Origin: an uncultured Clostridia bacterium
GTDB lineage: Bacteria > Bacillota > Clostridia > Oscillospirales > Ruminococcaceae
Assembly (NCBI GenBank): GCA_947627205.1
Contig: CANQVE010000013.1
Coordinates: 1-49,778, forward strand
Direction: 5' to 3'
Length of the DNA: 49,778 bases
Shown here piece by piece: positions 1,605 to 49,630 of the stretch. Position numbers and translations under genes: made by a program. Numbering within the stretch: the stretch's first letter is position 1; every line of letters begins with the position of its first letter. Below the pieces are notes generated by a model. The model had not been told where the DNA came from, did not search any database, and saw only the letters and a list, made by a program, of their open reading frames with translations.

Positions 1605-1607
1605 TGA

Positions 1608-2954: not shown

Positions 2955-2980
2955 AGCTGATGTTCCTTTCTTTATAATTT

Positions 2981-3033: not shown

Positions 3034-3140
3034 GGGGCATTATTCCGCCGAATTATCAACTTTTCTTTTTTGCATTTACAATTATCAACACCGCGTTCAA
3101 TAAACAATCAACGGCAAACAATAACCGGACGGGTTTTTGT

Positions 3141-3782
3141 TCATCTGTCGTCAAATTTCCTAAGAATAGGCTCCAATATACGCATGATAAGTCTCATAAA
3201 GAAGTTCGGTTTCTTTTTCTGTTTAGCGTGTTTTTCCTCCCATTCAGCGAGTTCCACCGCTATTTCCGCGGACATCTTTTCACATTCGCGGGCTTTTTCA
3301 TCCTGACCTGCAATACGGTAGGTATTTGCAAGATCCATATACCTAAGGTCAATACGGCGCTTTCTCTTAAGCTCCAATGTATCACATGCGTCTATGCAGA
3401 ACGTCAGACAGTCTATTGCGTCCTGCACGAGTTCGGGAGTGGAATATTTTTCATTCGGAATTATCTCCTCCAGCGTTGTGAAATACTCGAAATGAATATC
3501 ATACGAGTCGGGGCAAAGCTCGAGAGCCTTGTGATAATAAGGTATGCCTTGTTCGAGGTCTTGCCCGAAAACCACCGTCCAGCATCCGATATGCTGGCAG
3601 AATTTTCCAAGTCGAGCGCGGGCTTCACCCTCGGGATTTGGGTATTTTGAAACTATTTTTTCAACGTCCTCAAGATACCAACCGAGGAATTTTTCGTCCT
3701 CAAGCTCTCTGCCTACACCCTTGTACTTTGCGTTGAATTTCTCAATTTCGGCGGTCAGGGTTTCAATGTTGTTTTCGGGCAT
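3141..3782 (-). CDS. TPR-like hypothetical protein
   Basis: This 213-residue soluble, acidic protein is not one I can name. The middle contains helical pairs with tetratricopeptide-like spacing, for example GIPYYHKALELCPDSYDIHFEY (about residues 79-100) and YMDLANTYRIAGQDEKA later on. The C-terminus (about 190-213) switches to a basic, amphipathic segment with FFMRLIMRILEPILRKF, which could touch the membrane. It follows the HEPN gene by 17 bp on the same strand and probably shares its transcript. A protein-protein interaction role is an inference from the repeats only. Confidence 0.75.
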   Translation of the reverse strand: MPENNIETLTAEIEKFNAKYKGVGRELEDEKFLGWYLEDVEKIVSKYPNPEGEARARLGKFCQHIGCWTVVFGQDLEQGIPYYHKALELCPDSYDIHFEYFTTLEEIIPNEKYSTPELVQDAIDCLTFCIDACDTLELKRKRRIDLRYMDLANTYRIAGQDEKARECEKMSAEIAVELAEWEEKHAKQKKKPNFFMRLIMRILEPILRKFDDR

Positions 3783-3799
3783 TTTTCTTACCTTTCTGA

Positions 3800-4225
3800 T
3801 TAAAAATCCTTGCTCTCTATTTTGCCGATCTCCTCATCTGCTTTCTTAACAAAGTTGTCAACAAGTTTTATATACTCATTCTTGATAGCGTCGAAATAGA
3901 GTTCAATGTTTTCATTACGATAATCGTGGGTGGTATTGTTGCGGTCGATCATCATTTTCTTCCAGCGTGGACTGTCGACCAATCCTACTTCAAAGCTCAC
4001 CGCAAGCGTTCTCGCGGGACCTTTTATTGTCTGGTCGTCATTTGAATAACCGTAAACTGCTATCAAAAGCTCGTTCATCAGCTTCCAACATTCTTCAAAA
4101 AGATTATTGAACAAAAACGCCGCCGCAAGAGCTGCAACTCTGCTGTATTTATCTTTGGTTATCTGCCGAAGTTCGGCTATCGTTTCCTTGATTGCCTTAA
4201 GGCGTTCAACGTAATTGTATGACAT
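3800..4225 (-). CDS. HI0074-like nucleotidyltransferase partner / HEPN-type protein
   Basis: A helical protein of 141 residues (counting from the ATG at 4225) of the nucleotidyltransferase substrate-binding family, a relative of HEPN toxins. It contains RNNTTHDY at about residues 95-102, which fits R-X4-H-X-Y, the RNase motif of HepT-type toxins whose tyrosine is AMPylated by the paired MNT enzyme. I chose the ATG at 4225 because AAGGAG sits 10 bases before it; an upstream TTG at 4246 has no such site. It overlaps the MNT gene by 20 bp. Either a toxin-antitoxin pair or a non-toxic HI0073/HI0074-type enzyme complex would fit. Confidence 0.85.
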   Translation of the reverse strand: MSYNYVERLKAIKETIAELRQITKDKYSRVAALAAAFLFNNLFEECWKLMNELLIAVYGYSNDDQTIKGPARTLAVSFEVGLVDSPRWKKMMIDRNNTTHDYRNENIELYFDAIKNEYIKLVDNFVKKADEEIGKIESKDF

Positions 4226-4505
4226 CTCCCAACTTCTCCTTATCAAACTTAAACCCCGAATAATTTACATTATGCACATCAAACCTGCGTATAGTATCAA
4301 TGCTTTCAAGCCTTTCAACGATTTCAAAATACTCGTCTATCCCGCAGTCTATCATAATGTCAATATCGCTGAAACGGTTGTAATCCCCCTTGGCATACGA
4401 ACCGAAAATAAATGCGCTTTTTATTGTTGAAAAAGAGGACATCACCGCTTTGATGTTTTCAATCACGGCTTTTCGGTCGTCTGTTATGTTGTTAATTTCT
4501 GACAT
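4206..4505 (-). CDS. MNT-type minimal nucleotidyltransferase (antitoxin-like)
   Basis: A 99-residue minimal nucleotidyltransferase. The GSX10DXD signature is intact (G35-S36, D47-I-D49), and a third candidate carboxylate is D76 in RRFDVHNV. In characterised HepT/MntA pairs the MNT protein transfers AMP to the tyrosine of the HEPN RX4HXY motif, which silences the RNase. Its stop lies inside the start region of the HEPN partner (20-bp overlap), so the order is antitoxin-first. An AAAGGAA site precedes the ATG. A truncated paralogue lies 1 kb upstream in the same run of genes. Confidence 0.88.
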   Translation of the reverse strand: MSEINNITDDRKAVIENIKAVMSSFSTIKSAFIFGSYAKGDYNRFSDIDIMIDCGIDEYFEIVERLESIDTIRRFDVHNVNYSGFKFDKEKLGDVIQLR

Positions 4506-4534
4506 TTTGTGTTCCTTTCACTTATCTTAAAATG

Positions 4535-4867
4535 CTAATCGCTGAACCACGAACCATTGTATTTCTTCTGCGCCCTGTTTCCTATCAAAAAACAAACAGC
4601 AAATCCCGCGCCGAACAAAATCCACCCAAACTCGGCGCGTAAAATAAGGTCAACAATTCCGACAAGGCAGATGCAAATGCCCAAAATCACCATTCCCACG
4701 CCCCAAAGCGTTGTATACGGCTTTATGTCCTCGGTTTTTACGTTTTTACAGTGATAATCATGTATCAGCCGTATTTTCTGCTTTTTCCACAGCAATACCC
4801 CGACTGTGATAAACAAAATGCCTATCGGCAAAGTAATTATCATTTCAACTATTCCTGCGGCATACAT
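4535..4867 (-). CDS. Small membrane protein, DUF3784-like
   Basis: About 110 residues from the ATG at 4867, chosen because GGGAGG lies 8 bases upstream; a longer reading to 4939 has no comparable site. The N-terminus (IITLPIGILFITVGVLLW) is one transmembrane helix, followed by a short polar stretch with HDYHCKNV and then two more helices. This layout, a first helix followed by a polar HDYH/AGYN-like motif and paired helices, recalls DUF3784 proteins. Function is unknown. It sits between the MNT gene and another small membrane protein on the same strand. Confidence 0.75.
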   Translation of the reverse strand: MYAAGIVEMIITLPIGILFITVGVLLWKKQKIRLIHDYHCKNVKTEDIKPYTTLWGVGMVILGICICLVGIVDLILRAEFGWILFGAGFAVCFLIGNRAQKKYNGSWFSD

Positions 4868-4991
4868 TTTATTCACCCTCCCAACAGCACAGCGAGGTTT
4901 TAGATTTAAGGCGGGCGCAATGATGAACATTCCCGCCAAGACGTTCGGCTTTTTCGGTTAAGCTGCACCGTCGCATTAACCGTTCATATTT

Positions 4992-5321
4992 TTAATTAAG
5001 TCCGCTCACGGCAATCAAAAACATTGTTAAAACAAGCGCGATTTTCCCTATAATAAACCACCTGCGGGCATGGCGAAACTGTTTCTCCGTGCAGTTTTCG
5101 GGACACGAAAAAACGTTGGCGTGCTGTGGCGATACAGAGCAAAGCGTACATATGCCGTAGATAATGACCGTCAAAATCAACATTATTATTGCCTCGCCCG
5201 ATATTTTCCCAAGCGCAAACATCAAAATATATCCCGCGACAGCGCACGCCGTGACAATAATCGCCGCTATCTCAGCGAACTTTTCACCTTTAGTGTAAAT
5301 CAGCTTTTCATTAGCGTTCAT
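4992..5321 (-). CDS. Small three-helix membrane protein, unknown
   Basis: A 109-residue protein with predicted transmembrane segments at about 17-37, 42-62 and 87-107. A cytoplasmic or external Cys/His-containing loop (SVSPQHANVFSCPENCTEKQF) lies between helices two and three. I do not recognise the family. The ATG has AAAGGAG seven or so bases upstream and overlaps the TGA of the truncated MNT gene (ATGA), so its translation is likely coupled to that remnant. Confidence 0.75.
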   Translation of the reverse strand: MNANEKLIYTKGEKFAEIAAIIVTACAVAGYILMFALGKISGEAIIMLILTVIIYGICTLCSVSPQHANVFSCPENCTEKQFRHARRWFIIGKIALVLTMFLIAVSGLN

Positions 5322-5551
5322 AACGGTTCTCCTTTCGTCTTTGCAGTTAAGCCGCGCCGCTTGTTATTACAGCAAATCAATTCTATCCCGCAGTCTATCA
5401 TAATGTCAATATCGCTGAAACGGTTGTAATCCCCCTTGGCATACGAACCGAAAATAAATGCGCTTTTTATTGTTGAAAAAGGGGACAAGACCTCTCTGAT
5501 GTTTTCAATCACGGCTTTTCGTTCGTCTGTTTTGTTATTATATTTGGGCAT
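5318..5551 (-). pseudogene. Truncated second copy of the MNT nucleotidyltransferase
   Basis: The first 53 or so of 77 codons are a close copy of the MNT gene at 4206-4505, including GSX10DXD, its start and its ribosome-binding site. At DNA level 5382-5480 is nearly identical to 4336-4434. After the CGI codons the reading frame leaves the family and ends in 24 unrelated residues, so the third catalytic carboxylate is gone. It is probably inactive, left by a partial tandem duplication whose breakpoint is near 5382. It is still an open frame, coupled by ATGA to the next gene, and could act as a leader or as a regulator. Confidence 0.8.
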
Positions 5552-5575
5552 TTCGATTTCCTTTCGCTCAAATCT

Positions 5576-6382
5576 TCAGACCTCCATATACTTCCCCAAA
5601 AACTCGATTGAAAGCGGTATCCAGCGCCTTACGGACGGGCGCTGATAGTTTTCATCGCCCGCTACTTTATCGCAGGTAGCTATTCCGTGAGGTCCCTCGT
5701 CGAACATGTGAAACTCCACGGGAACTTTGTTTGAAATGCACGCCTTAGCCATAACGAGCGAGTTGTGCGCCGAAACGCTCTCGTCGTTTGCCGTACACCA
5801 GATAAACACGGGCGGTGTTTTCGGAGTAACGCGGTTTTCAAGCGACAATCTAGACAAATCCGAGCGGTTCATTTCTTCTCCGAGCAGTGTTTTAAAGCTC
5901 CCCTCGTGAGGCGCGGTAACTCCGCTTATAACGGGATAGCACAAAACCGCCGCATTCGGTCTCAGGTCCTCGGGAGTACATTCAAGCGATTTCGTAAGGA
6001 AATTGTCGTTCCACATTGTCGCAAGACAGCCCGCAAGATGTCCGCCCGCAGAAAATCCGAGAACGGCTATCTTTTCGGGATCTATCCCGAACTCCTCCGC
6101 TCTCTTGCGTATCTTTAAAAACGTATACGCCGCGTCAAGAAGCGGGGCAGGGAACCTTTCGTTTACCGAATAAGACACGACAAACGCCGTATATCCCGCC
6201 GCAAGATACTGAAGCGCGACAGGCTCGCCCTCTCTCGGGGAAATATGCTCGTAACCGCCGCCGGGGAATATAACGACCGACGGGCGCTTTTGGGTGAACT
6301 CTATCCCCGTAATGCTGTCGGGGAGATAAGCCTTTACAACAGCCGTCCTGTCCGAATTTATCGAAAATGTTTTAACTTTCAT
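5576..6382 (-). CDS. Alpha/beta-hydrolase, acetyl-esterase type
   Basis: A 268-residue cytoplasmic esterase of the BD-FAE/acetyl-esterase group; it has no signal peptide. It shows FPGGGY at residues 39-44 (oxyanion hole), the nucleophile elbow GFSAGG at 109-114 (Ser111), an acidic residue in the TANDESV stretch and the catalytic histidine in EGPHGIA. Family members remove acetyl or similar groups from sugars and oligosaccharides, which suits a plant-polysaccharide-using gut bacterium. It is the first gene of the minus-strand run that goes through the MNT remnant, with a 24-bp gap. The exact substrate cannot be read. Confidence 0.88.
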   Translation of the reverse strand: MKVKTFSINSDRTAVVKAYLPDSITGIEFTQKRPSVVIFPGGGYEHISPREGEPVALQYLAAGYTAFVVSYSVNERFPAPLLDAAYTFLKIRKRAEEFGIDPEKIAVLGFSAGGHLAGCLATMWNDNFLTKSLECTPEDLRPNAAVLCYPVISGVTAPHEGSFKTLLGEEMNRSDLSRLSLENRVTPKTPPVFIWCTANDESVSAHNSLVMAKACISNKVPVEFHMFDEGPHGIATCDKVAGDENYQRPSVRRWIPLSIEFLGKYMEV

Positions 6383-6399
6383 TTTTTACAACTTCCTTT

Positions 6400-6626
6400 C
6401 CGTTTCGCTGTTTTTCGACATGCAACAGCAAAAAAATATATCAGTTGGTATAAAATGCCTATTTTTTGTTCTTTTCAAACTCTAGTTTCTAACATCTTGC
6501 CTTTAAAACGGTATTTCTCTCAATAACGTTTACTCGCCCTTTTAGAGGTAAGAGGTTAGAGGTAAGAAGTAAGAGTTTAAACCCTTAACTCTTTTTCTTC
6601 GTTATATTCAACAACTGCCGACACGG
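6400..6626. repeat. Repeat island: reversed spacer K and heptads
   Basis: Upstream of the esterase, the gap contains a reversed spacer K piece (about 6463-6540, ending ACGTTTACTCGCCC) interrupted by heptads, then TTAGAGGTAAGAGG-type 7-nt repeats (about 6544-6582). The last part, AACAACTGCCGACA, resembles the second heptad family. No gene is seen. Confidence 0.7.
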
Positions 6627-7967
6627 CTATTTCTTTTTCCTTTTTTCCCTGAATTTACGCCATTTCTCGCGGTTTTTCTCGTTTGTTCTGCGTATGCCTG
6701 CGGGAATACTGCGAAAGCGCGTTATGCTGTCGGTTATATTGTCGATAGCGGAGAAAAATTCTTCCTGAATAACGCCCTCACGGCGCTGTGTCTTTCCGCT
6801 CATGCATTTTTCAATTACCGCGGGATAACGGTCGAACGCGCGCTTTACGGCGGTTTCCCATGAAATATAGACCTCGTTCATTGCGTTTTCGCCTATCTCA
6901 CGCAGTTTTTCACGGTTCTTCGCCGCAAATTCCAGCTTGTTCGCCATGTCCTCGGCGCTTGCTTTGCAGATAAATCCCGTTCTTCCGTCGGTTATGCCCT
7001 CCGCCGCGCAGCTCCCCTCGAGCAATACCGAGCTCACTCCGCAAGCCGCCGCCTCGCGCACGACAATGCCGTTTGTGTCATACTCCGACGGGAACAAGAA
7101 AAGCTCTCCTGCCGTATAGAACACCCTGAGTTCTTCGCGGTCGTATACTGCGCCCGTAAAAATGCACTTTTCGTCAAGATGAAGCTCTTCGGTGTACTGT
7201 TCAATTTCTTCGCGCTCCTGACCGTCGCCGACGAACATCATTCTGAAATCAACGTTCCTTTCGTCAAGGAGCTTGAGCGAATCGAGAATGAGCCTTATGC
7301 CCTTATACCACATAAGCCTGCCGACAAATAAAAACAAGACTGCGCTGTCGGGAATGTCAAAAGCGCTTCTAAGCGCCGCGGCGTCGTCCTCGTCGGCTCT
7401 GCCTTTCGGGAAATCAACTCCGTTTTCCATAACGATAATTTCTCCGTCATAGCCGATAGAGCGGAGATTGTCGCCCGCGCCCTTGCTTACCGTCCAGACC
7501 TCGTCGCAGGCATAGATATTATTGACAACAAATTTAATGACCTGATCCGCCATGAGCTTATTCGGGATAGCGTGGTAGATGTCGATGTCAAATTTTGTGT
7601 GATATGTAAAAACTATCGGGATATTGTTCTTTTCACGGAGAACTCTAGCCATTACGGTCGAGGCAAAAGGGCAGTGGCTGTGGATTATGTTGGGCTCGTT
7701 CATTGTGAGAGCGTTCAGCTTTCGGCTCGAAAACGGATAGCCCATTCTGTAGCCCCAGATCTTCTGCGTATTTATGCTTCTGTAGCGTATAACTTCAAAA
7801 GGATAGTCGTCTACGACTCCGGGATATTCGGGAGTAACGACGGTAGCTCTCCCGAGACCGTTTGAAATGATGCTTGCATAATTTATTACAACATTGGCAA
7901 CTCCGTCTATGGTAGGCGGAAATGAATCGTTCATAAGGCATACGCCGAGTTTATCGTTTTCGTTCAT
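6627..7967 (-). CDS. GT4 family glycosyltransferase
   Basis: A 446-residue glycosyltransferase of the GT-B fold, family GT4. The N-terminal domain has FPPTIDGVANVV, and an HSHCPFAS segment, both typical of glycolipid mannosyl/glucosyltransferases. The C-terminal domain has FLFVGRLMWYKG and the E-X7-E motif in SEYDTNGIVVREAAACG. The tail is very basic (KNREKWRKFREKRKKK), which suggests membrane association. I used the ATG at 7967 (MNENDKLG) because an AAGAGG site precedes it and the longer frame to 8054 crosses A/T-rich promoter-like sequence. It likely glycosylates a diacylglycerol or a surface polymer precursor. Confidence 0.9.
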   Translation of the reverse strand: MNENDKLGVCLMNDSFPPTIDGVANVVINYASIISNGLGRATVVTPEYPGVVDDYPFEVIRYRSINTQKIWGYRMGYPFSSRKLNALTMNEPNIIHSHCPFASTVMARVLREKNNIPIVFTYHTKFDIDIYHAIPNKLMADQVIKFVVNNIYACDEVWTVSKGAGDNLRSIGYDGEIIVMENGVDFPKGRADEDDAAALRSAFDIPDSAVLFLFVGRLMWYKGIRLILDSLKLLDERNVDFRMMFVGDGQEREEIEQYTEELHLDEKCIFTGAVYDREELRVFYTAGELFLFPSEYDTNGIVVREAAACGVSSVLLEGSCAAEGITDGRTGFICKASAEDMANKLEFAAKNREKLREIGENAMNEVYISWETAVKRAFDRYPAVIEKCMSGKTQRREGVIQEEFFSAIDNITDSITRFRSIPAGIRRTNEKNREKWRKFREKRKKK

Positions 7968-7980
7968 AATATATTGACCT

Positions 7981-8043
7981 CTTGAATTTTTCGTATAGTA
8001 TTGTATTATAGTATCATAATATAATATTTTACCATAATTCAAG
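7981..8043 (-). promoter_or_regulatory. A/T-rich control region of the GT4 gene with short inverted repeat
   Basis: The stretch contains TTGAAT and TATGAT spaced by 18 bp on the minus strand and further TATAAT-like words, bracketed by CTTGAATT (7981-7988) and AATTCAAG (8036-8043). Promoter position is uncertain because the sequence is A/T-rich. Confidence 0.35.
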
Positions 8044-8094
8044 AAAAAAAACAAGGGGTTATTTCAATTTGTTTCCGCCTTTATATAAAGCCAC

Positions 8095-8240
8095 ATCTGC
8101 TAGAGGCTGGAGGTTAGAAGCAAGAGGCAAGAATAAGTTTCGAGCGGGGAACAGCGTTTCAAATTTCAAGCACTGCACGGGCGTCGCACGTTAAGTGGTT
8201 TGTGAGTAAAACGTTGTTTCCCGCTTATATCATCCCTGCT
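8095..8240. repeat. Repeat fragment downstream of sigF
   Basis: Heptads (TAGAGGCTGGAGGTTAGAAG and following, about 8100-8132), then the AGCGGGGAACAGCG spacer and the GCACGGGCGTCGCACG spacer also found in other islands. It ends at the sigF stop codon. Confidence 0.7.
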
Positions 8241-8885
8241 TCAAATCAGCTGTTCTCTGAGCTGTCCTAAAATTTTCCGCTCACGGCGGGAAACGCTGAC
8301 CTGTGAAATGCCGAGGAGCTGTGCGGTCTCCGTCTGCGACTTATTGCAAAAATACCGAAGCACAATAAGTCTTCGGTCGTCCTTTTCGAGAGAGCTTATG
8401 CACTGCTCCAGCGCCAGGCGGTCTATAATGCTGTTTTCATGGCTCTCTTCGGGGAGGGATATCTCGTTTTTCTCGTCGTCGCAGGTAAGCGAAAGCGCGG
8501 GCATAAGCGCGGAAATTGCCTCCGCAACGTCGCTTTCATCTGCACCGAGCCTTTGTGCAAGCTCGCTCACCGTCGGCTCCCGTCCCTCTTTTGAAAGCTC
8601 TTCGCGAAGTTTTGACACTTTCATTGACAGTGATTTTATCGAACGACTTATTTTGACCGCACCGCCGTCGCGGAAAAGCCGTTTTATTTCTCCGAGTATA
8701 ACGGGCACGGCGTATGTCGAAAAGCACAAACCCCTGCTTTCGTCAAAGTTCGCGCAGGCTTTTACAAGCCCCGCGCACCCCGCCGCATAAAGCTCCTCGT
8801 ATTCAATTCCGCGCCCTCGGAAACGGTTTGCGAGAGAATGAACGAGAGGGAGATTTGCTTTTACAAACTCGTCATTGTTTTTCAT
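8241..8885 (-). CDS. sigF: Sporulation sigma factor F
   Basis: A 214-residue sigma-70 family factor of the SigF/SigG/SigB group, lacking region 1. Region 2 reads GRGIEYEELYAAGCAGLVKA with the FSTYAVPVILGEIKR helix, and region 4 carries the SQTETAQLLGISQVSVSRRERK helix-turn-helix. It directs early forespore transcription. It is the third gene of an intact spoIIA operon and overlaps spoIIAB by 14 bp, so stoichiometric control by coupling is likely. SigG is the closest alternative, but SigG genes are not in this operon context. Confidence 0.95.
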   Translation of the reverse strand: MKNNDEFVKANLPLVHSLANRFRGRGIEYEELYAAGCAGLVKACANFDESRGLCFSTYAVPVILGEIKRLFRDGGAVKISRSIKSLSMKVSKLREELSKEGREPTVSELAQRLGADESDVAEAISALMPALSLTCDDEKNEISLPEESHENSIIDRLALEQCISSLEKDDRRLIVLRYFCNKSQTETAQLLGISQVSVSRRERKILGQLREQLI

Positions 8886-25359: not shown

Positions 25360-25651
25360 AACGCCTGCAGTCAGTTGACAGGAGACAGTATGCAGTAAGA
25401 GCCGAAAGGCTGTCCGCTCATTTATCACTTTTGAATAATTGTAGGAACTTCTTTCCCGCTCAAAAGTTTTTTCATACTGAATGTACTTTTACGTTCAAAA
25501 CCTCTTTTAGGATTGCCGTTTTAAAAACACAGTTTTTAAAACGGCAATGCGGGGAAAACTCTTGTTTTCCCCGCACCCCCACCAAAGGGCGCAATGCGCC
25601 CTTTGGAAACCCAAATACCGCGCCTTACGGCGCGGTTGGATAGCGGAAAGG
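25360..25651. repeat. Composite repeat island upstream of yfhO
   Basis: GTCAGTTGACAGGAGACAG heptads (about 25371-25395), a CCGCTCAAAAG spacer, hairpin A variant with GTTTTAAAAAC arms (25515-25545), B (25549-25574), F (25582-25606) and G (about 25617-25636). No gene. 25191-25355 upstream of the YfhO start is A/T-rich with a TATAAT word (minus, 25269-25274) but no good -35. Confidence 0.85.
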
Positions 25652-25802
25652 CTGTTTGCCGAATATAACGCATAAAAAGAAAAAGAGGCTAGAGCTTAAA
25701 CTCTAGCCTCTTGCCTCTTTCTCTGAATATCAAAAACTTTATCTCCAAAAAGTTCGTTTATACTCTTACCTCTTACTTCTTACCTCTAACCTCTAGAAGC
25801 CC
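25652..25802. repeat. 151-bp inverted repeat, copy 2
   Basis: Reverse complement of 21628-21778 with one mismatch. It includes the terminator hairpin AAGAGGCTAGAG-6-CTCTAGCCTCTT (25683-25712) with an A-run on the plus side, so it terminates the minus-strand operon. It overlaps the last five codons and the stop of the flavodoxin-fold gene. Confidence 0.92.
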
Positions 25803-26493
25803 AATGCGCCAGCGTTATCGTTTCAAACCCTTTCGGCGAAAGTATCGGTCTTGATATGCGCTTTTTCGTTTCCTCGGACAACGCCCTGTTTTGCGCAAAC
25901 TCCGCACCCGCCGCCTTTATGTCCGCAAGATACCCCTCGCGCTGTCTCTTCGCCTTTTCGGCTATAAATAATTCCCCCTCGGGGCAGAGTATCGCCGTAT
26001 AATGCCCGTCTCCGCAGATAAGATCGTATTCCTTTAAAAGCGCAGGGAACATCGGCTTTTCGTCCACATATCCGCAGGTCGAGATCACCACAAGCCTCTT
26101 TTCGTGCATCGTTTCATCTCTAAGCTCATGGAACGACGCGTTCTTGTCCTCTACAAGATTTCCCATATACGGGAGCATAAACGGCAGACACCTGTCCGTC
26201 ATTGCCTTTAGCTGCGACGGCATACCGAAAAAGTACAGCGGAAAGCTCTCGATTATTATGTCCGCCACCTTTATCTTTTCATAAAGCCCCTGCATGTCGT
26301 CGTTTATAACACAATGCCCCTGCGTCTTGCTCCAGCAGGAAAAACACCCCACGCACGGCTTTATGTTCATTTTATAAAGATTTGCATATTCAACTTCCGT
26401 ATCGCTCGGAAAACCGCTTATAAACGCTTTTGTTATGTTCAGCGTATTCGACCTCTCGGTTTTCGGACTGCCGTTTAAAACCAGAATTTTCAT
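25786..26493 (-). CDS. Flavodoxin-fold NAD(P)H-dependent oxidoreductase
   Basis: A 235-residue FMN-binding protein of the NADPH-dependent FMN reductase/flavodoxin-like group. The FMN phosphate loop is GSPKTERSNT at 8-17, and a CVGCFSCW cysteine pair (about 52-59) follows, as in iron-sulfur-flavoprotein-type reductases. Last gene of the acyl-carrier operon, 18 bp after the phosphopantetheinyl transferase gene. It may supply reduction to the product, for example of double bonds or quinone-like groups, but the substrate is unknown. Its last residues (ASRG) and TAG stop are encoded by the repeat. Confidence 0.85.
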   Translation of the reverse strand: MKILVLNGSPKTERSNTLNITKAFISGFPSDTEVEYANLYKMNIKPCVGCFSCWSKTQGHCVINDDMQGLYEKIKVADIIIESFPLYFFGMPSQLKAMTDRCLPFMLPYMGNLVEDKNASFHELRDETMHEKRLVVISTCGYVDEKPMFPALLKEYDLICGDGHYTAILCPEGELFIAEKAKRQREGYLADIKAAGAEFAQNRALSEETKKRISRPILSPKGFETITLAHWASRG

Positions 26494-26511
26494 AACTTCT
26501 CCTTGTTTAAT

Positions 26512-27174
26512 TTACTTACATTCAACAGTTTCTTTTTCGCCTTTTGCTATACTTCCAAGCGGAACACTGATACTGTAATAGTAATTTTTACCGCTCGCTC
26601 TGATAACACCGCCCAGAAGCTCTCCGTCCGAAAGGTCAACGTCCTTAAAGCTCCCGAAAATATCCAAACCAGCGCGCTTTATATAAGCCTCTCTGCGTGT
26701 CCACGCTCCGAAAAACGCCGCGCTCTTGTCCGAGGAATTATTGAACTCCATAAGCTCTTTTTCGTTCATAAACGCCCATGCAAGCTCGGACATTTTCTCC
26801 GCCGAATACTCCCTCGCATACTGAACGTCACAGCCGACCTGTGCAGTTTCTCCGTTTTCGGACAGCGCCAGAACGCAGAATGCACAGCCCTCACTGTGCG
26901 AAACGCTGAAATCGACCTTATCGCCTACGACATACGGGCGGTTTTTTTCGTCATGTGCAATTATAAGCTCCGCGCGGTTTATCCTGTTTTTTACAAGCAG
27001 TCCGTCAAGCAGAAGAAATCCGCACGCGCTCTCGCAGAAAGCCTCTTTTCTCCTGCTCATTATCTCGCCGAAATAGTTCGCGCAGGCGGGGGAATAAAGC
27101 TCTCTTGCGCTTTCGATACGGCTTCTAAGTCCGCTCCCACCCGTTACAAAACAAGCCGAATAGTCAATTTTCAT
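26512..27174 (-). CDS. 4'-phosphopantetheinyl transferase, Sfp type
   Basis: A 220-residue Sfp-type enzyme that transfers phosphopantetheine from CoA to the serine of a carrier protein. Motifs are FSVSHSEG at 89-96, GCDVQ at 114-118 in place of the usual G(I/C)D(V/I)E, and WTRREAYIKRAG at 158-169. The Glu of the second motif is Gln here, an unusual change at a Mg-binding position, though the next Glu (REYSAEK) could compensate. Overlaps the dehydratase gene by 11 bp. It is a dedicated activator for the ACP of this operon; the general AcpS is expected elsewhere. Confidence 0.88.
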   Translation of the reverse strand: MKIDYSACFVTGGSGLRSRIESARELYSPACANYFGEIMSRRKEAFCESACGFLLLDGLLVKNRINRAELIIAHDEKNRPYVVGDKVDFSVSHSEGCAFCVLALSENGETAQVGCDVQYAREYSAEKMSELAWAFMNEKELMEFNNSSDKSAAFFGAWTRREAYIKRAGLDIFGSFKDVDLSDGELLGGVIRASGKNYYYSISVPLGSIAKGEKETVECK

Positions 27175-27619
27175 CTTCGTACACCAAGCTCTTGTCTATC
27201 GCAGTAAACAGCATTCTTCCCTTTGCTCTTACGCTTCCGTCGACGGAAATTTTCGCGTCGAACTCGCATGCCGCCTCGCTCATAAGCACGCACTCAACGC
27301 TTATTTCAAGCGTGTCTCCCGGGATAACGGGCTTTAAAAACTTAAAGTCCTTTACTCTAAGAAGCACATACAGCTTGCTTTCGTCGTCCGCCGCGCCCTC
27401 GGGCGCAATTACGAGACTGCAAAGCTGTGCCGCGGATTCAATAAGAAGCACCCCCGGCATTATCGGTGCGTCGGGAAAATGCCCCATAAAATAAGGCTCG
27501 TTTACCGAAACGTTCTTTATGCCCTTTGCGCTTTTGTTGGGAACAAGCTCCGTTACGCGCTCTATCATCTGAAAGGGCGGGCGCTGTTTAATGCGCTTGT
27601 TTATTTCAAGTATGTTCAT
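27164..27619 (-). CDS. FabZ-like hotdog 3-hydroxyacyl-ACP dehydratase
   Basis: A 151-residue hotdog-fold dehydratase. The catalytic histidine is His47 in FMGHFPDAP and the acid Glu61 in MPGVLLIESAAQL, both intact, and the opening PPFQMIERV is standard. It removes water from 3-hydroxyacyl-ACP to give the trans-2-enoyl chain. It is the only dehydratase of the operon and lies 77 bp after the ketoreductase. Length matches FabZ. Confidence 0.93.
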   Translation of the reverse strand: MNILEINKRIKQRPPFQMIERVTELVPNKSAKGIKNVSVNEPYFMGHFPDAPIMPGVLLIESAAQLCSLVIAPEGAADDESKLYVLLRVKDFKFLKPVIPGDTLEISVECVLMSEAACEFDAKISVDGSVRAKGRMLFTAIDKSLVYEDEN

Positions 27620-27696
27620 AATAAATTCACTTCTCCGAATATCGGGCTGTTATGAATGCCCGAATAATTTACCTTATGTTCAATTATTTAAACTCT

Positions 27697-28440
27697 TTAC
27701 AGGCTAAGTCCGCCGTCCAGCACTATAACTTGTCCCGTCATATAATCGAATGCACCCGAACAAAGCGCCGCTACGGTATCTGCGACCTGTTCTGCCGTGC
27801 CGAATTTTCCCATAGGAACGGCTTTTATATACTCCGCTTTTTTCTCCTCGGGGATATTGTTCATCATTTCCGTTTCGATAAATCCCGGAGCAACGGCGTT
27901 TACGGTGATGTTTCTCGGAGCAAGCTCTTTTGCGAGCGTCGCGGTCATTGAATTCACCGCGCCTTTTGTCGCGGAATAAACGCCCTGCCCCTCGACTGCA
28001 AGCACGGAGCTTACGGAAGAAACGTTTATTATCTTCCCGCCCGTTTTCATCATTTTTAGAGCCGCCTGCTGTGCGCAGTGAAAATAGCCCTTTATGTTTA
28101 TGTCAAGGCTTCTGGAAAGGCTCTCCTCGTTTATCATCAGCAGATAAGCGTCGTCTACCACGCCCGCATTGTTTACAAGTACGTCAATTCTCCCGAAAGT
28201 TTTCCATATCTCCCTGAACATATTCTGAACGGCTTTGAGGTCGGAAGTGTCAGCCTTTACGGAAAGCGCTTTCTGTCCGAGCTTTTCGATTTGAGCGCAG
28301 ACCTCGTTTGCCTTTGCGTCGTTTGAAACATAGTTCACCGCTATGTCATACCCGCACTCTGCGAGCTTTATCGCGCAGGCTCTGCCTATTCCTCTTGAAG
28401 CGCCCGTTACGAGCGCGACTTTGCTGTTGTTTGCTTCCAT
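27697..28440 (-). CDS. FabG-like 3-oxoacyl-ACP reductase
   Basis: A 247-residue short-chain dehydrogenase. The cofactor motif is TGASRGIG (12-19), NNAG lies at 90-93, and the catalytic set is Ser141/142, Tyr155 (YSATK) and Lys159. It reduces the beta-keto group on the carrier protein using NADPH. The gene starts 1 bp after the ketosynthase fusion gene's stop, so translation is coupled. It may be specialised for the product of this operon rather than for housekeeping fatty acids. Confidence 0.95.
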   Translation of the reverse strand: MEANNSKVALVTGASRGIGRACAIKLAECGYDIAVNYVSNDAKANEVCAQIEKLGQKALSVKADTSDLKAVQNMFREIWKTFGRIDVLVNNAGVVDDAYLLMINEESLSRSLDINIKGYFHCAQQAALKMMKTGGKIINVSSVSSVLAVEGQGVYSATKGAVNSMTATLAKELAPRNITVNAVAPGFIETEMMNNIPEEKKAEYIKAVPMGKFGTAEQVADTVAALCSGAFDYMTGQVIVLDGGLSL

Positions 28441-28441
28441 T

Positions 28442-30682
28442 TTACACCACCTTTTTCAGAATTACCGCCGAATACTGTCCGCCCGTGCCGAATGAAACAG
28501 CCAGACCGTATTTGTACATATCGCTTTCGCGGAGCGTAACTGCTAATTGCATTGCCTGCTTTGCCGCGCCTGCCGCTCTCGCTTCGCCTGTCTCGTCTTT
28601 TATTGTCACATAAGTGCAGTTTTTGAGCAATTCGCCGAGGACTTCCTTTTCGGCATTGTCCACTTCTTCAAGACCGTCCGAAGCTCCGCATACAAGGTCA
28701 ATATCATCAGCGCTTATCCCCGCACATTCGCATGCCTTTAAAACGGCTTCTTTAAGCGCACTCTCCGAGCCTTTGAGTTTTCCGAACTCTACCGCCTTGT
28801 GTGCCGAAGCGTAGCCTATAAGCTCCGCATATTTCTGCGCGCCGCGCTTTTCGGCGGAGCTTTCCTTTTCGAGGATAAGCGACACAGCACCCTCTCCAAG
28901 CTCCATCTTTCCTCCGAGCAAGCCGAGCTTTCCGTAAAGATACTCGGTGACATCCGTGTTTTCGTCAACGCCTGCCGCGACCATGATATCCTCGTCGCCG
29001 TTCTTTAAAACGTCCGCCGCGTAGCATATACTCTGAAGTCCTGCCTGAACGCCGTTTGCGTTAGTCACGTTATAGCCCTTTATTCCCGCGAATATCGAGA
29101 AATAACCGCCCGCGGCGTTGTATACGGTATTCGGGAAAGAGAACGCCGAACCGCTCGCCGTTCCGTTTGCGACAACGTTTTTCTGAAAGTTTACTATCTC
29201 CGTCATAGGACCGTCCGAAGTTCCTATTATAATTCCTATATCGCGCTCGTTGTCCTCGGATACGGTAATATTCGCGTCCGAAAGCGCCCTCATTCCGCTT
29301 ACCAGCATAAGCTGAGAAAACCTGTCGAGTTTTCTCCAGAACGCCATTTTTATTCCCAAATTCTTATAATCGTCCGACTGTATGTCGATTTTTCCCTTTG
29401 CGGTGTAATCGCCCAAGCCCGTAACGAAAATGTGCTCGTTATTCGTCCTGTCGGGAATTTCATGCGGATTTTTCGCAAAGACAACGGAAGCGTTGTTCCC
29501 GCCGAAAGCAAAAGAATTTGACGCCGCGTAGTTTACGGCCTTTTCACGCTTTGTATTTGAAATGAAATCAATGTTCCCCGCTTTTTCTTTAAGAACGGCA
29601 AGGTCCTCTTCGGTGTAGCCTATTGTCGGGGGAAGAACGTTTTCGCAGACAGCCTTTACCGTCAGTACCGCTTCGATAGATCCCGCCGCGCCGAGACAAT
29701 GCCCCGTCATTGACTTTGTGGAGCTTACGGAAAGCCCGTCACTGCCGTCGAAAATAGTATGGAGCGAAAGGAATTCGGCTTCGTCGTTCTTTGCTGTACC
29801 CGTGCCGTGAGCGTTTATATAGTCAATGTCCGAGGGTTTAAGCCCCGAATTTTCAATTGCTCTGTTTATCGCGAGCATCTGTCCTTGTCCGTCGGGACGG
29901 GGAGCGGTTATGTGGTGAGCGTCGGAGCTTACTCCCGAGCCTAAAATTTCGCAGTAGATATGCGCGCCCCTTGCTTTTGCATGCTCATAACTTTCAACAA
30001 CGAGTATTCCCGCGCCCTCTCCGAGCGTTATGCCGTGGCTTTTGTTAAACGGCGAGCAGGAGTTTTCGTCAAGCGCATGGAGCGCGTGAAATCCCGCGAA
30101 CGCAAGAGATGAAAAGCTGTCCGAACCGCCTGCGCAGAAAGCGTCAGCCTTTCCCGCGCGGATAAGGTCGCATGCATACGCAATTGAAATAGTTCCCGCG
30201 GCGCAGGCGTTTACGATATTAGCGGTCGTTCCGTTAAGTCCGAAATGGAGCGCTACATTGTTTGCGATAGCCGAAGCGGGCATTTTCAGAACGTCCGAAG
30301 CCTTGCCGCCGCCGTTTTTAAGCTCGTCGGTAAAATACTTGTCGATAGAAGCCGCACCGCCTACGCAGTTTCCGACAATAACGCCTATTCTCGCCGAATT
30401 TTCGGTAGTAATTTCATACTTTGCGTCTGCGAGGGCTTCTTCCGCGGCTTTTATGCACAAAAGCGACGAACGGTCGCAGTCCTTGTCCGAAAGTTTATCA
30501 TCGGAAATTTTAGCCTCCGCGCCGAGCTTTGCATAACAGCCGTCGGTGTTTACCGACTTTACTTCTTCTATTCCCGATTTTCCGTTTACCGCATTTTTAA
30601 AGCATTCTTCAACATTGTCGCCGAGCGCGCAGACAATACCCAGCCCCGTTACGACAACGCGCCTTTTATCCGAATTTTCCAT
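28442..30682 (-). CDS. Ketosynthase/chain-length-factor fusion (type II KS-CLF in one protein)
   Basis: A 746-residue protein with two tandem thiolase-fold modules. Module 1 (about 8-405) is an intact KAS II-type ketosynthase: Cys160 in VNACAAG, His292 in HGTGTAKND, His328 in GHCLGAAG. Module 2 (about 418-746) keeps the fold (TGLGDYT, IIIGTSDGPM, FSFPNTVYNAAGGYFS) but its nucleophile is Asn543 (TNANGVQAG) and both histidine motifs are lost, so it is catalytically dead, as in chain-length factors. In type II systems KS and CLF are separate subunits; here they are fused, giving fixed 1:1 stoichiometry. It elongates acyl-ACP chains. A product cannot be predicted confidently. Confidence 0.93.
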   Translation of the reverse strand: MENSDKRRVVVTGLGIVCALGDNVEECFKNAVNGKSGIEEVKSVNTDGCYAKLGAEAKISDDKLSDKDCDRSSLLCIKAAEEALADAKYEITTENSARIGVIVGNCVGGAASIDKYFTDELKNGGGKASDVLKMPASAIANNVALHFGLNGTTANIVNACAAGTISIAYACDLIRAGKADAFCAGGSDSFSSLAFAGFHALHALDENSCSPFNKSHGITLGEGAGILVVESYEHAKARGAHIYCEILGSGVSSDAHHITAPRPDGQGQMLAINRAIENSGLKPSDIDYINAHGTGTAKNDEAEFLSLHTIFDGSDGLSVSSTKSMTGHCLGAAGSIEAVLTVKAVCENVLPPTIGYTEEDLAVLKEKAGNIDFISNTKREKAVNYAASNSFAFGGNNASVVFAKNPHEIPDRTNNEHIFVTGLGDYTAKGKIDIQSDDYKNLGIKMAFWRKLDRFSQLMLVSGMRALSDANITVSEDNERDIGIIIGTSDGPMTEIVNFQKNVVANGTASGSAFSFPNTVYNAAGGYFSIFAGIKGYNVTNANGVQAGLQSICYAADVLKNGDEDIMVAAGVDENTDVTEYLYGKLGLLGGKMELGEGAVSLILEKESSAEKRGAQKYAELIGYASAHKAVEFGKLKGSESALKEAVLKACECAGISADDIDLVCGASDGLEEVDNAEKEVLGELLKNCTYVTIKDETGEARAAGAAKQAMQLAVTLRESDMYKYGLAVSFGTGGQYSAVILKKVV

Positions 30683-30740
30683 GATACCTCCAAGAGTGAA
30701 ACTGAAAATTAAAATTCAATCTTTATAAAAAGTCCTGATT

Positions 30741-30869
30741 CAGCCTGTAGAGAAAGCCCCAGATACCGCATTGAACGCTACGCGTACAACGCTGAAGCGG
30801 TGCTGCGGCTAGGCTTTGTGCCTGCCTCAGCACCGCTGACGCCGTAGATGGGGCTTTATATACAGTCTG
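30741..30869 (-). repeat. Structured inverted-repeat element, copy 1 (after ACP)
   Basis: 129 bp. Outer inverted ends are CAGCCTGTAGAGAAAGCCCC-like and its complement CAGACTGTATATAAAGCCCC-like. Inside is a second strong hairpin (AGCGGTGCTG ... CAGCACCGCT) with AGGC/GCCT loops. It starts 4 bp after the ACP stop. A 24-bp CATTGAACGC...GTACAACG insert lies in one arm. Confidence 0.85.
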
Positions 30870-30873
30870 ATTA

Positions 30874-31119
30874 TTACTGCTGATGTTCTTCTACAAACTT
30901 TGCAAGAGTGTTTATGCTCTGAAAGTTTTCTCTTGCCGCGCCCGTCATCTGAACGCCGAAAAGGTTGTCAATGCCCGCGATTATCTCAATTGAATCAATA
31001 GAGTCAAGCCCGATGTCGTCGCCGAAAAGCTCCGAATCATATTCAAGCTCGTCCTCGGGTATTCTCAGGTTTTCTACCAGCATTGCCTTGATCTTCGCGC
31101 AAATTTCCTCATTAGCCAT
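30874..31119 (-). CDS. Acyl carrier protein
   Basis: An 81-residue acidic ACP with four-helix pattern. The phosphopantetheine attachment site is Ser40 in GLDSIDSIEI. It carries the growing chain for the KS/CLF, KR and DH of this operon. Most ACPs have DSL at the site; here it is DSI. It lies 20 bp after the acyltransferase gene and is followed by the structured repeat element. Confidence 0.93.
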   Translation of the reverse strand: MANEEICAKIKAMLVENLRIPEDELEYDSELFGDDIGLDSIDSIEIIAGIDNLFGVQMTGAARENFQSINTLAKFVEEHQQ

Positions 31120-31139
31120 AATACATATCCTCCATATAT

Positions 31140-31808
31140 TTATTTCTCGGCATATTGACCGATTTTTCCGAATTTGTTTTCGAGCTCCGCATAGTTTGCT
31201 TCAACGGCGGTCTGCGCCTTTGTCATAAGCTCTCTTGCGTACTTTCCGTGCCTCATGTTTTCGGGGCATTTGCTTTCTATAGGCTCGCCTATAAGAATTT
31301 TCTGCCTCATTCCGAAAACAGGCTCGTATGTGCCGTAAATTGCACAGGGAACTATCATTGCGCCCGTTTTTGCGGATATAAGCCCTGCGCCGGGCTTAAA
31401 CTCGTTTATTTTTCCGTTCTTTGACAGAGCTCCCTCGGGGAAGATGAGGAGCGAGCCGTTTTCGCCGATTATTTCCTCGCACTCTTCAAACCATTTTCCG
31501 TCAGCCTCGTCGAGCGAAATGGAAATGCATCTGCACCAGGAGATCATTTTTCCCGTGCGTTTTTTCTCGAACCATTTTTTAGTGACAAGCACCCACGGTT
31601 TATAGCGCCAAAGCACTGCGCCGCCGTAAGCTCCGTCGAAATGGTGGGTGTGATTTGCGACAAACACACAAGGTTTTCCTTTAAGGTAATTTTTCAGATC
31701 CTTGTTTGCGTATAATATCTTTGGTCTGAACAGGAAATAGACTGTCCAGGTTATGAGTATCTGAAAAAACTTTCCCCACAAGCTCTGCCTTGATTTTTTT
31801 TTGCTCAA
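31140..31808 (-). CDS. PlsC-like 1-acylglycerol-phosphate acyltransferase
   Basis: A 222-residue LPLAT-family acyltransferase. It shows the HX4D motif in NHTHHFD (His53, Asp58) and FPEGALSKNG near the middle, with an N-terminal hydrophobic anchor (FFQILITWTVYFLFR). It is the first gene of the operon and probably hands the finished acyl-ACP to a lipid or glycan acceptor at the membrane. I use a TTG start at 31808: GGGGAG sits 7 bp upstream. The ATG at 31835 lacks a ribosome-binding site and is where the promoter predicts transcription to begin. Confidence 0.85.
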   Translation of the reverse strand: MSKKKSRQSLWGKFFQILITWTVYFLFRPKILYANKDLKNYLKGKPCVFVANHTHHFDGAYGGAVLWRYKPWVLVTKKWFEKKRTGKMISWCRCISISLDEADGKWFEECEEIIGENGSLLIFPEGALSKNGKINEFKPGAGLISAKTGAMIVPCAIYGTYEPVFGMRQKILIGEPIESKCPENMRHGKYARELMTKAQTAVEANYAELENKFGKIGQYAEK

Positions 31809-31839
31809 TAGATCACTCCCCGAATTGCTGTACATTATT

Positions 31840-31930
31840 ATTATAGCGCAAATGCCCGAGCTTTTTCAATGGACAATATGCAACAAAACCGCCCTTAAAG
31901 GACAAACTTAATACATTTTGTTGCATATTG
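31840..31930 (-). promoter_or_regulatory. Promoter and long palindrome of the acyl-carrier operon
   Basis: Minus strand: TTGAAA (31864-31869), 18 bp, TATAAT (31840-31845). Immediately upstream of the -35 is a perfect 15-bp-arm inverted repeat, CAATATGCAACAAAA (31874-31888) and its complement (31916-31930), 27 bp apart. The distance suits an activator or DNA-looping repressor. Regulator unknown. Confidence 0.7.
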
Positions 31931-31969
31931 ATTTTTTGTTAATGGAAATTCGGTTATAATTCACAAAAA

Positions 31970-32240
31970 GAGGGGAGCGCTACGCGCGGGAATTGTAATT
32001 AAGCACAAAACGCCCTAAAAAGCCCGGGAGGCTAAAAGCTGTTTCGAGCGGGGAACAACCCAAAGAGTAAAACCGCTTTGGAGCGGGAAAAAAGTTCACG
32101 ATAATTATTCAAAAGTGACAAATGAGCGGACAGCCTTTCGCCTAAAACTCTTGCATCTTGCCTCTTTCTCTGAAAGCCAGAAAACTTTGTCTCCCGAAAG
32201 TTCCTCGAAATTCTTACCTCTTACATCTTACCTCTTGCCT
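31970..32240. repeat. Repeat island upstream of the DUF4258/YgiT pair
   Basis: AGCGCTACGCGC palindrome near 31978, spacer modules (TTTCGAGCGGGGAACAAC, about 32042-32059), then CTCTTGCATCTTGCCTC and CTTACCTCTTACATC heptads (about 32149-32237) with the same unique middle as the 151-bp copies but more diverged. No gene. Confidence 0.72.
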
Positions 32241-32285
32241 ATAATTTGCCCAAATAGTTGCGCGCGTATTTGTGCAAACAGTACA

Positions 32286-32314
32286 TTGTTTTTCGTTTGA
32301 TTATTTAGTATAAT
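32286..32314 (+). promoter_or_regulatory. Promoter of the DUF4258/YgiT pair
   Basis: TTGTTT (32286-32291), 17 bp, TATAAT (32309-32314), 45 bp before the first start codon. Confidence 0.7.
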
Positions 32315-49271: not shown

Positions 49272-49286
49272 AGCTTTGGCGACAGC

Positions 49287-49630
49287 AAAGCGGTGCGTCT
49301 ATAAGCCGGGTTCTGTCTTGCACGGTCATCTATCTACCCTTTTCGTTGCCGAAAAGGTCTAGCCGCCTTAAGCGGGGAGCGCCGAGCAGACGCTTTGTTC
49401 CCCGCACCAATCGGCGTTGCATCGGATAGGGTTTACATGGCGATATGCTCTCGCATATCCCGGTGAGCTCTTGCCTCGCCTTTCCACCCTTACAGCAAAC
49501 ACTGCGGTATATTTCTGTTGCACTAGCCCTAAGGTTGCCCTCGGCCGACGTTATCGGTTATCCTGCTCTGTGATGCCCGGACTTTCCTCATGACGCTCTC
49601 GCGCCCCGCGATCGTGCGACGCGCCGCTTT
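49287..49630 (-). ncRNA. rnpB: RNase P RNA (bacterial class A)
   Basis: On the minus strand the RNA carries the universal GAGGAAAGTCCGGGC and ACAGAACCCGGCTTATAG segments and AGGGTAGATAGATGACCG-type P4/J. The P1 stem pairs AAAGCGG(c)GCGTC at 49618-49630 with GACGC(a)CCGCTTT at 49287-49299. The exact 5' end may extend a few bases. Confidence 0.97.

What the first reader, a model, noticed from the sequence alone, without database searches (positions are those of the whole stretch)
25786..31930. Compact type II polyketide-like operon with a fused KS-CLF
Seven consecutive minus-strand genes encode PlsC-like acyltransferase, ACP, KS-CLF fusion, ketoreductase, FabZ dehydratase, Sfp phosphopantetheinyl transferase and a flavodoxin-fold reductase. 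Seen directly: Cys160/His292/His328 in module 1, and Asn543 with lost histidine motifs in module 2. There is one KR and one DH but no enoyl reductase or malonyltransferase, so chains would stay unsaturated unless the flavodoxin-fold enzyme reduces them. Known type II systems (aryl polyenes, aromatic polyketides, ladderane- or flexirubin-type) have separate KS and CLF. The product, perhaps an acylated polyene lipid, is inference.
Basis: partly seen in the sequence, partly recalled or inferred. Interest (0 to 1): 0.8.

Follow-up and report, generated by a model that had tools for sequence, protein, structure and literature searches.

The report
Gut-bacterium operon with fused ketosynthase
This gut bacterium carries a compact set of genes, built around one double-length enzyme, that probably makes an unsaturated (polyene-like) fatty chain and attaches it to a lipid; similar sets occur in other gut Clostridia, and the product is not known.

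Summary
Seven minus-strand genes (25786-31835) encode a PlsC-like acyltransferase, ACP, a 746-aa fused ketosynthase/chain-length-factor (KS-CLF), ketoreductase, FabZ-type dehydratase, PPTase and a flavodoxin-fold protein with a conserved four-cysteine motif. The fusion is no accident: 37 of 43 genomes of the genus match it, and 88 rows, mostly Clostridia including Ruminococcus bromii and Lachnospiraceae, keep the KS triad (87 as one double-length frame). Lachnospira eligens has one too. Module 2 lacks a nucleophile but is under purifying selection. AlphaFold2 predicts one intramolecular KS/CLF pair; among the 50 PDB rows shown only PfaC of PUFA synthase spans both modules. A tree keeps both modules outside the sampled FabFs, beside fused proteins of Priestia and Streptomyces. 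Corrections: Asn543 is not the active-site position (Val545 is), and fused KS-CLF is not unprecedented; two Lactobacillus reuteri polyene-type clusters have single KS genes of 688 and 798 aa, by length possibly fused as well. Most likely function: a dedicated polyene or polyunsaturated acyl synthase whose chain goes to a lipid. The product is inferred. New variant of a known kind.

The parts
31840..31869 (-). sigma-70-type promoter-like site, TTGAAA-18-TATAAT (11 of 12)
   Evidence: pattern match only, the scan found 9 such sites in 25600-32300 against 6.5 (sd 3.0) in shuffles
31140..31835 (-). PlsC-like (lyso)glycerophospholipid-type acyltransferase, 231 aa from ATG; likely true start TTG 31808 behind GGGGAG
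   Evidence: PF01553 62.7 bits, cut-off 23; HX4D motif His62 72/72, Asp67 69/72 rows; start judged by eye
30874..31119 (-). acyl carrier protein, 81 aa; phosphopantetheine Ser40 in DSID
   Evidence: PF00550; Ser40 84 of 84 rows
30736..30874 (-). palindromic dispersed repeat between ACP and KS-CLF genes; strong RNA hairpin; probably not specific to the operon
   Evidence: z -7.2; 62 matches in own genome, the window copy included
28442..30682 (-). fused ketosynthase-chain length factor, 746 aa
29459..30682 (-). module 1 (residues 1-408): active ketosynthase; Cys160 (30203-30205), His292 (29807-29809), His328 (29699-29701)
28445..29425 (-). module 2 (residues 420-746): chain-length-factor-like, no nucleophile (Cys position = Val545, 29048-29050), histidines lost; N-terminal part short
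   Evidence: dN/dS 0.044-0.156 in 10 pairs
27697..28440 (-). 3-ketoacyl-ACP reductase (FabG/SDR), 247 aa
   Evidence: Asn115, Ser142, Tyr155, Lys159 82/82 rows
27164..27619 (-). FabZ-type 3-hydroxyacyl-ACP dehydratase, 151 aa
   Evidence: His47 and Glu61 73/73 rows
26512..27174 (-). Sfp-type 4'-phosphopantetheinyl transferase, 220 aa (overlaps the dehydratase gene by 11 bp)
   Evidence: PF01648; W158/E162/K166 31/31 rows
25786..26493 (-). flavodoxin-fold NAD(P)H:FMN reductase family protein with C-x2-C-x2-C-x7-C (Cys47/50/53/61), probable Fe-S flavoprotein
   Evidence: the four Cys 71 of 71 rows
25683..25712 (-). terminator-like hairpin followed by a T-rich run, just after the last gene
   Evidence: 13 pairs, tail TTTCTTTTTA; pattern match only, 12 found in the scan against 8.6 in shuffles

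Best explanation
The operon encodes a dedicated, iterative, dissociated acyl synthase. The PPTase arms the operon's own ACP. FabD of the housekeeping FAS loads malonyl groups. In the fused protein the KS module condenses and the catalytically dead CLF module completes the acyl tunnel and sets chain length, as one covalently tied pseudo-heterodimer. The ketoreductase and FabZ-type dehydratase act each round, and because the operon has no enoyl reductase the chain keeps its double bonds, giving a conjugated polyenoyl-ACP. The PlsC-like enzyme then moves the chain onto a glycerol-type lipid. The four-cysteine flavoprotein does a redox step whose substrate is unknown. Shown from sequence: gene content, active-site residues, conservation, selection; predicted: fold. 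Inferred: polyene nature, lipid acceptor, chain length, role of the flavoprotein.
For: Active-site residues of KS, KR, DH, ACP and PPTase are kept in every aligned row, those of the acyltransferase in 72/72 (His) and 69/72 (Asp). AF2 of the whole protein gives pLDDT 88.4 and pTM 0.92; its first PDB match is the PfaC KS-CLF didomain (E 4e-51, TMq 0.79), while the other 49 rows shown are single FabF-type chains (TMq about 0.51). The tree of 65 rows keeps fused KS (97/93), fused CLF (100/99) and FabF (100/97) apart. Module 2 is under purifying selection, dN/dS 0.044-0.156. The genome holds malonyltransferase, KASIII, FabG-like, FabF, FabZ-like and ACC genes in a separate cluster. In 11 loci a malonyltransferase gene follows the operon within 1.2-1.8 kb of the KS-CLF, and in 9 of them also a fused AccD-AccA, so malonyl units are the likely substrate; L. 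eligens has an annotated malonyltransferase and AccD there. Two published Lactobacillus reuteri clusters with one KS of 688 or 798 aa, KR and no ER (a DH in pks only) are predicted to make conjugated polyenes; strains without pks lose the 405-409 nm absorption (PMC6498181). Aryl polyene clusters also carry a lysophospholipid acyltransferase, ApeD (PMC8253772 passages).
Against: No product, pigment or lipid is known to me for any of these operons. An enoyl reductase could act in trans, or the flavoprotein could be one. The L090-type loci (L032-L034, L090, L092, L093) have no PlsC beside the KS-CLF and no dehydratase between KR and flavoprotein; in 19 kb around one of them no PlsC was found and the only dehydratase lies in a FAS-like cluster (L122). 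PPTase is in the operon in only 31 of 88 loci. Homology of L. reuteri PksB/FunB to this protein was not tested, only length and gene content. The Priestia and Streptomyces fused proteins are no more identical to this one (34-35%) than the own FabF is (36%), so that link rests on tree and architecture.
Confidence: 0.55

Rival explanations
1. A dissociated PUFA-like or unusual fatty acid synthase: double bonds are skipped, isomerised or partly reduced (by the flavoprotein or the housekeeping enoyl reductase), and PlsC puts an unusual unsaturated or hydroxy acyl chain into membrane phospholipid.
For: The one PDB row spanning both modules among the 50 shown is PfaC of PUFA synthase; a figure legend lists an AGPAT domain among domains of prokaryotic PUFA synthases (PMC9702510 passages), matching the PlsC-like gene here; a flavin/Fe-S-type redox protein is common in the operon (73 of 88 loci; four Cys 71 of 71 rows).
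Against: The dehydratase is FabZ-like rather than FabA-like; no ER, tandem ACP or second KS in the operon; by sequence module 2 is no closer to PfaC (73 bits) than to FabF (170 bits).
Confidence: 0.27
2. A short-chain specialised metabolite: the KS-CLF makes a short unsaturated acyl chain that is cyclised or transferred to a small molecule, as in cispentacin-type or lactone-forming systems.
For: NCBIfam cispentacin models match weakly: AmcF 257.6 bits (KS-CLF), AmcE 57.2 bits (dehydratase), AmcB 38.3 bits (ACP); the L. reuteri pks product was hypothesised to be a lactone (PMC6498181).
Against: These scores are under the curated cut-offs (325, 140 and 80 bits); no recognisable cyclase or aminotransferase in the operon; the PlsC-like gene argues for a lipid acceptor.
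Confidence: 0.12
3. A redundant copy of housekeeping fatty acid synthesis with a FabF duplication.
For: Module 1 scores 479.4 bits against the FabF model (cut-off 493.75) and is 42% identical to B. subtilis FabF.
Against: A separate FAS cluster with its own FabF exists; both modules fall outside the FabF group of the tree; module 2 has lost its catalytic residues yet is conserved.
Confidence: 0.05

Closest known systems
Lactobacillus reuteri R2lc pks and fun clusters, and granadaene-type clusters (PMC6498181: abstract, passages, parts 2 and 3 of 7 of the main text)
   Same: Bacillota; one KS gene of 688 or 798 aa, KR, PPTase, ACP, no enoyl reductase, DH in pks; [quoted passage not shown] fun has a TetR regulator, and both have ACC and malonyltransferase functions as some Lachnospiraceae versions here
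   Different: carry biotin ligase, transporter (pks) or amino-acid-conjugating (fun) genes; no PlsC-like gene is listed in the tables; the paper names the KS simply as ketosynthase; sequence homology to the window protein not tested here
PfaC KS-CLF didomain of PUFA synthase (PDB 6riw)
   Same: KS and CLF in one polypeptide, both modules aligned
   Different: part of a multidomain megasynthase; sequence not specially close
Aryl polyene clusters (ApeO/ApeC; PMC8253772 and PMC8358021 passages)
   Same: KS plus CLF, KR, DH, ACP, lysophospholipid acyltransferase ApeD; no ER in the gene table
   [quoted passage not shown] Gram-negative
Ishigamide and actinorhodin KS/CLF (6kxd, 1tqy)
   Same: KS/CLF fold
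   Different: discrete subunits; the actinorhodin CLF has Gln at the Cys position (alignment), here Val545
Fused KS-CLF of Priestia megaterium pBM500 and Streptomyces plasmids (L128-L131)
   Same: double-length KS-CLF in clusters with MAT and ACP (KR and DH in L128-L130); group with this family in the tree
   Different: 34-35% identical; other neighbouring genes (GcvT-like, MFS; KASIII, aldo/keto reductase, FAD oxidoreductase); products not stated in the records

Membership tests
Type II PKS minimal system (KS-CLF-ACP) | active KS with Cys-His-His | tested here: met
   88 of 88 rows
Type II PKS minimal system (KS-CLF-ACP) | paired KS-like subunit without active Cys | tested here: met
   Cys position is Val545, variable in relatives; histidines lost
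Type II PKS minimal system (KS-CLF-ACP) | KS and CLF as separate polypeptides | tested here: not met
   one 746-aa frame; 87 of 88 rows are one frame of 700 aa or more
Type II PKS minimal system (KS-CLF-ACP) | dedicated ACP and a malonyl source | tested here: met
   ACP 30874-31119; malonyltransferase-family gene in own FAS cluster L119:5479-6402
Aryl polyene cluster | aryl starter activation, second KS (ApeR), two ACPs, thioesterase and export genes | tested here: not met
   none in the seven-gene operon against Table 1 of PMC8253772
Aryl polyene cluster | lysophospholipid acyltransferase and no enoyl reductase | tested here: met
PUFA synthase (Pfa) | KS-CLF as one didomain | tested here: met
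   Foldseek rank 1 6riw, TMq 0.79
PUFA synthase (Pfa) | multidomain megasynthase with tandem ACPs, FabA-type DH and ER | tested here: not met
   discrete genes, one ACP, FabZ-like DH, no ER in the operon
Bacillota polyene clusters (L. reuteri pks/fun, granadaene type) | single double-length KS, KR, DH or borrowed DH, PPTase, no ER | tested here: met
   window genes against Tables 2-3 and text of PMC6498181; likeness of architecture only
Bacillota polyene clusters (L. reuteri pks/fun, granadaene type) | sequence homology of the KS proteins | not tested
   PksB/FunB sequences were not obtained; Priestia relative L128 compared instead
Bacillota polyene clusters (L. reuteri pks/fun, granadaene type) | coloured polyene product | not testable with these tools
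   needs culture or expression
Iron-sulfur flavoprotein (flavodoxin fold with compact Cys motif; motif recalled) | C-x2-C-x2-C-x4-7-C in a flavodoxin-fold protein | tested here: met
   C-x2-C-x2-C-x7-C 71 of 71 rows, PF02525/PF03358; cluster binding not testable

The most novel reading that the evidence does not exclude
Many obligately anaerobic gut Clostridia, including Ruminococcus bromii and Lachnospira eligens, make a so far unrecognised class of membrane-anchored polyene lipids with a single-chain KS-CLF synthase, finished by a four-cysteine Fe-S flavoprotein acting directly on the acyl chain. The single-chain KS-CLF would be an old architecture shared with Priestia and Streptomyces clusters and missed by surveys that pair separate KS and CLF genes.
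Probability: 0.4. Interest if true: 0.75.

Novelty: new variant of a known kind. Interest (0 to 1): 0.55.

Why it matters
If right, gut Clostridia, among them R. bromii, called a keystone starch degrader in an abstract seen, carry a pathway for a polyene or polyunsaturated lipid that I did not find described in the listings of my searches; in the window's genus it is nearly fixed. Elsewhere polyene clusters are tied to protection from reactive oxygen (PMC8253772 passages) and to pigment and host AhR sensing (PMC6498181). Relatives lie in named species (R. bromii, L. eligens), so the product can be sought directly, and a single-chain KS-CLF is a convenient protein for studying how a CLF sets chain length.

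Tried and rejected
Celluxanthene/flavoaffinin (yellow affinity substance) as the product: passages of the two papers describe a PKS cluster with KAS III, ligase and a type I PKS, unlike this operon. Cispentacin-type: scores under the cut-offs. Housekeeping FabF duplication: contradicted by the tree. A discrete-KS/CLF version in Clostridia: a module-2 profile at E<=1e-60 found only fused proteins, 4 of 391 class genomes and 1 of 398 phylum genomes, the window's own included; strict threshold, so distant discrete CLFs are not excluded. PDB 9s5h (two KS-like chains, 285 bits to module 1, 161 bits to the module-2 profile) may be a KS/CLF pair, but its organism and title were not obtained. The intergenic hairpin as an operon-specific riboregulator: rejected, it is a dispersed repeat with 62 matches in the genome; no Rfam match in the operon at gathering thresholds. 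VIA-align lists show mostly FabF-type chains; the absence of PfaC there proves nothing. Literature: ten searches; I saw only listings of at most 20 papers each (one search had 4,968 matches), and in those listings nothing on this operon or on a natural fused KS-CLF other than PUFA synthases; the library lacks most subscription journals.

Rows dropped: one search tried 15 relative FabF loci; six were dropped and two (L013, L031) came in as nonsense because I translated the wrong strand; one search was run without those two, leaving 7 relatives plus the own FabF. One search warns of long CLF branches meeting, so the join of Clostridial with Streptomyces CLFs is less sure than its support. Of the 257 relatives only the best 80 were returned and studied. 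L003 and L044 appear to be the same genome, L071-L074 are near-copies, L088 is interrupted (654-aa frame), and L070 (labelled Bacteroides) may be a misbinned contig, so the 88 rows are not independent. The dN/dS pair with L003 has a saturated dS in module 2 (2.84).
Full report
What is there. The region holds seven minus-strand ORFs in one direction: PlsC-like acyltransferase 31140-31835, ACP 30874-31119, a 746-aa protein 28442-30682, ketoreductase 27697-28440, FabZ-type dehydratase 27164-27619, Sfp-type PPTase 26512-27174 and a flavodoxin-fold protein 25786-26493. Gaps are short except for 191 bases between the ACP and the double-length gene, which hold a dispersed repeat. Pfam and NCBIfam agree with the names. 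A promoter-like site with 11 of 12 matches (31869-31840) and a terminator-like hairpin with a T-rich run (25712-25683) bracket the set; these are pattern matches only, and the scan found few more sites than shuffles (9 against 6.5; 12 against 8.6). The better-looking ribosome-binding site precedes a TTG at 31808, nine codons inside the ATG ORF (read). The stated end of 31930 lies upstream of the first gene.

The double-length protein. Module 1 (1-408) is a FabF-like ketosynthase with Cys160, His292 and His328, unchanged in 88 of 88 rows. Module 2 (420-746) is a ketosynthase relative without catalytic residues. The actinorhodin CLF has Gln there (alignment). The second His aligns to Glu in a conserved GEAR motif. 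Across 10 pairs with relatives module 2 evolves at dN/dS 0.044-0.156 and module 1 at 0.045-0.087, so the inactive module is maintained, with somewhat more freedom.

How widespread. In the genus 37 of 43 genomes match at E<=1e-150, and 25 of the 27 that are at least 90% complete and at most 5% contaminated; in one of the 37 the frame is split and in one the match is partial. In the family sample 5 of 197 genomes have the fused form among the matches listed, and in the class sample 4 of 391 (the other four rows of that tally are FabF-length); both counts include the window's own genome. The scan of named GTDB genomes found 257 relatives, of which the best 80 were returned; they include Ruminococcus bromii (L067, L084, L113), Eubacterium sp. 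MSJ-21 (L102), Ruminococcaceae bacterium P7 (L087), a Saccharofermentans MAG (L093) and many Lachnospiraceae MAGs. Lachnospira eligens carries a 797-aa version on its megaplasmid.

Neighbourhood. In 88 loci, many cut by contig ends, gene clusters by similarity were: KR 82, ACP 78, DH 77, flavoprotein 73, PlsC-like 71, PPTase 31. A TetR-type regulator lies near 19 and a patatin-like phospholipase near 16 (one representative of each typed by Pfam). A malonyltransferase-type gene is near 14: in 11 it follows within 1.2-1.8 kb of the KS-CLF end, in 9 of these with a fused AccD-AccA behind it, while in three (L090, L092, L093) it lies 3.7 kb off in a FAS-like cluster. L. eligens has a malonyltransferase and AccD annotated beside its operon. 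The six L090-type loci have two other genes in place of PlsC and no dehydratase between KR and flavoprotein; 19 kb around one of them show no PlsC. Active-site residues of KR, DH, ACP and PPTase that I checked are kept in every aligned row, the acyltransferase Asp in 69 of 72, and the flavoprotein has C-x2-C-x2-C-x7-C in 71 of 71 rows, the pattern of iron-sulfur flavoproteins (recalled).

Own genome. A separate cluster encodes a malonyltransferase, KASIII, FabG-like reductase, FabF, biotin carrier, FabZ-like dehydratase, biotin carboxylase and the two carboxyltransferase subunits, with an ACP-like ORF next to it. A second PPTase-family and two other PlsC-family proteins exist. No FabK passes its cut-off (the cut-off is strict, 13 of 14 control genomes ring but only one over it), and none of six SDR hits is clearly FabI by motif, so the housekeeping enoyl reductase was not identified.

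Phylogeny. A 65-row tree puts 25 fused KS modules on one side of a 97/93 branch, 25 fused CLF modules on one side of a 100/99 branch and 8 FabFs on one side of a 100/97 branch. The fused proteins of Priestia and Streptomyces fall with the Clostridial ones in both modules, which fits one old fusion, but the program warns that long CLF branches meet, and pairwise identity (34-35%) is no higher than to the own FabF (36%).

Known systems. Fused KS-CLF is known in PUFA synthases (PMC9702510 passages). A 2023 catalogue paired KS and CLF genes by proximity, 2000 bp being named (PMC10132072, Results section 13 read); single-gene fusions would be expected to be missed (inference). Most telling, two Lactobacillus reuteri clusters with a single KS of 688 and 798 aa, without enoyl reductase, are predicted to make conjugated polyenes, and strains without pks lose the pigment absorption (PMC6498181). 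These lengths fit a KS-CLF fusion, though the parts I read do not say so and I could not test the sequences. Aryl polyene clusters share KS/CLF, KR, DH and a lysophospholipid acyltransferase but have many parts missing here.

Interpretation. The best-supported reading is an iterative synthase that leaves its double bonds in place and hands the chain to a lipid acceptor. Shown: enzyme types, active-site residues, conservation. Predicted: fold. Inferred: polyene product, acceptor, chain length, flavoprotein role. The PUFA-like and short-chain alternatives remain open. I rate it a new variant of a known kind: the chemistry class is known, while the combination of single-chain KS-CLF, PlsC-like acyltransferase and four-cysteine flavoprotein, and its spread in gut Clostridia, did not appear in the listings of ten searches of an open-access library.

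Noticed in passing
window 30736-30874: Palindromic repeat between ACP and KS-CLF genes; 62 matches in the own genome, RNA fold z -7.2. Some other lineages have unrelated hairpin-rich gaps at the same place.
   Followed up: partly
own genome G000: No FabK over its cut-off and no clear FabI among six SDR hits, so the enoyl reductase of housekeeping fatty acid synthesis was not found.
   Followed up: partly
L128 (Priestia megaterium pBM500), 387-8414: Plasmid cluster with fused KS-CLF, MAT, FabG, phosphopantetheine-binding protein, FabZ, GcvT-like barrel protein, thioesterase and PPTase; looks like a granadaene-type polyene cluster (resemblance recalled).
   Followed up: no
L129, L130, L131 (Streptomyces plasmids): Clusters with two discrete KS genes plus a fused KS-CLF of 784-788 aa, KASIII, aldo/keto reductase and an FAD enzyme; product not stated in the records.
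   Followed up: no
L032-L034, L090, L092, L093: Variant operons with an asparaginase-fold protein and a 210-aa protein without Pfam match where PlsC would be.
   Followed up: partly
window 49286-49627 (-): RNase P class A RNA (Rfam RF00010, 261 bits).
   Followed up: no
G965:C44:11451-13564: In one genus member the KS-CLF gene is split into two frames; left as found.
   Followed up: no
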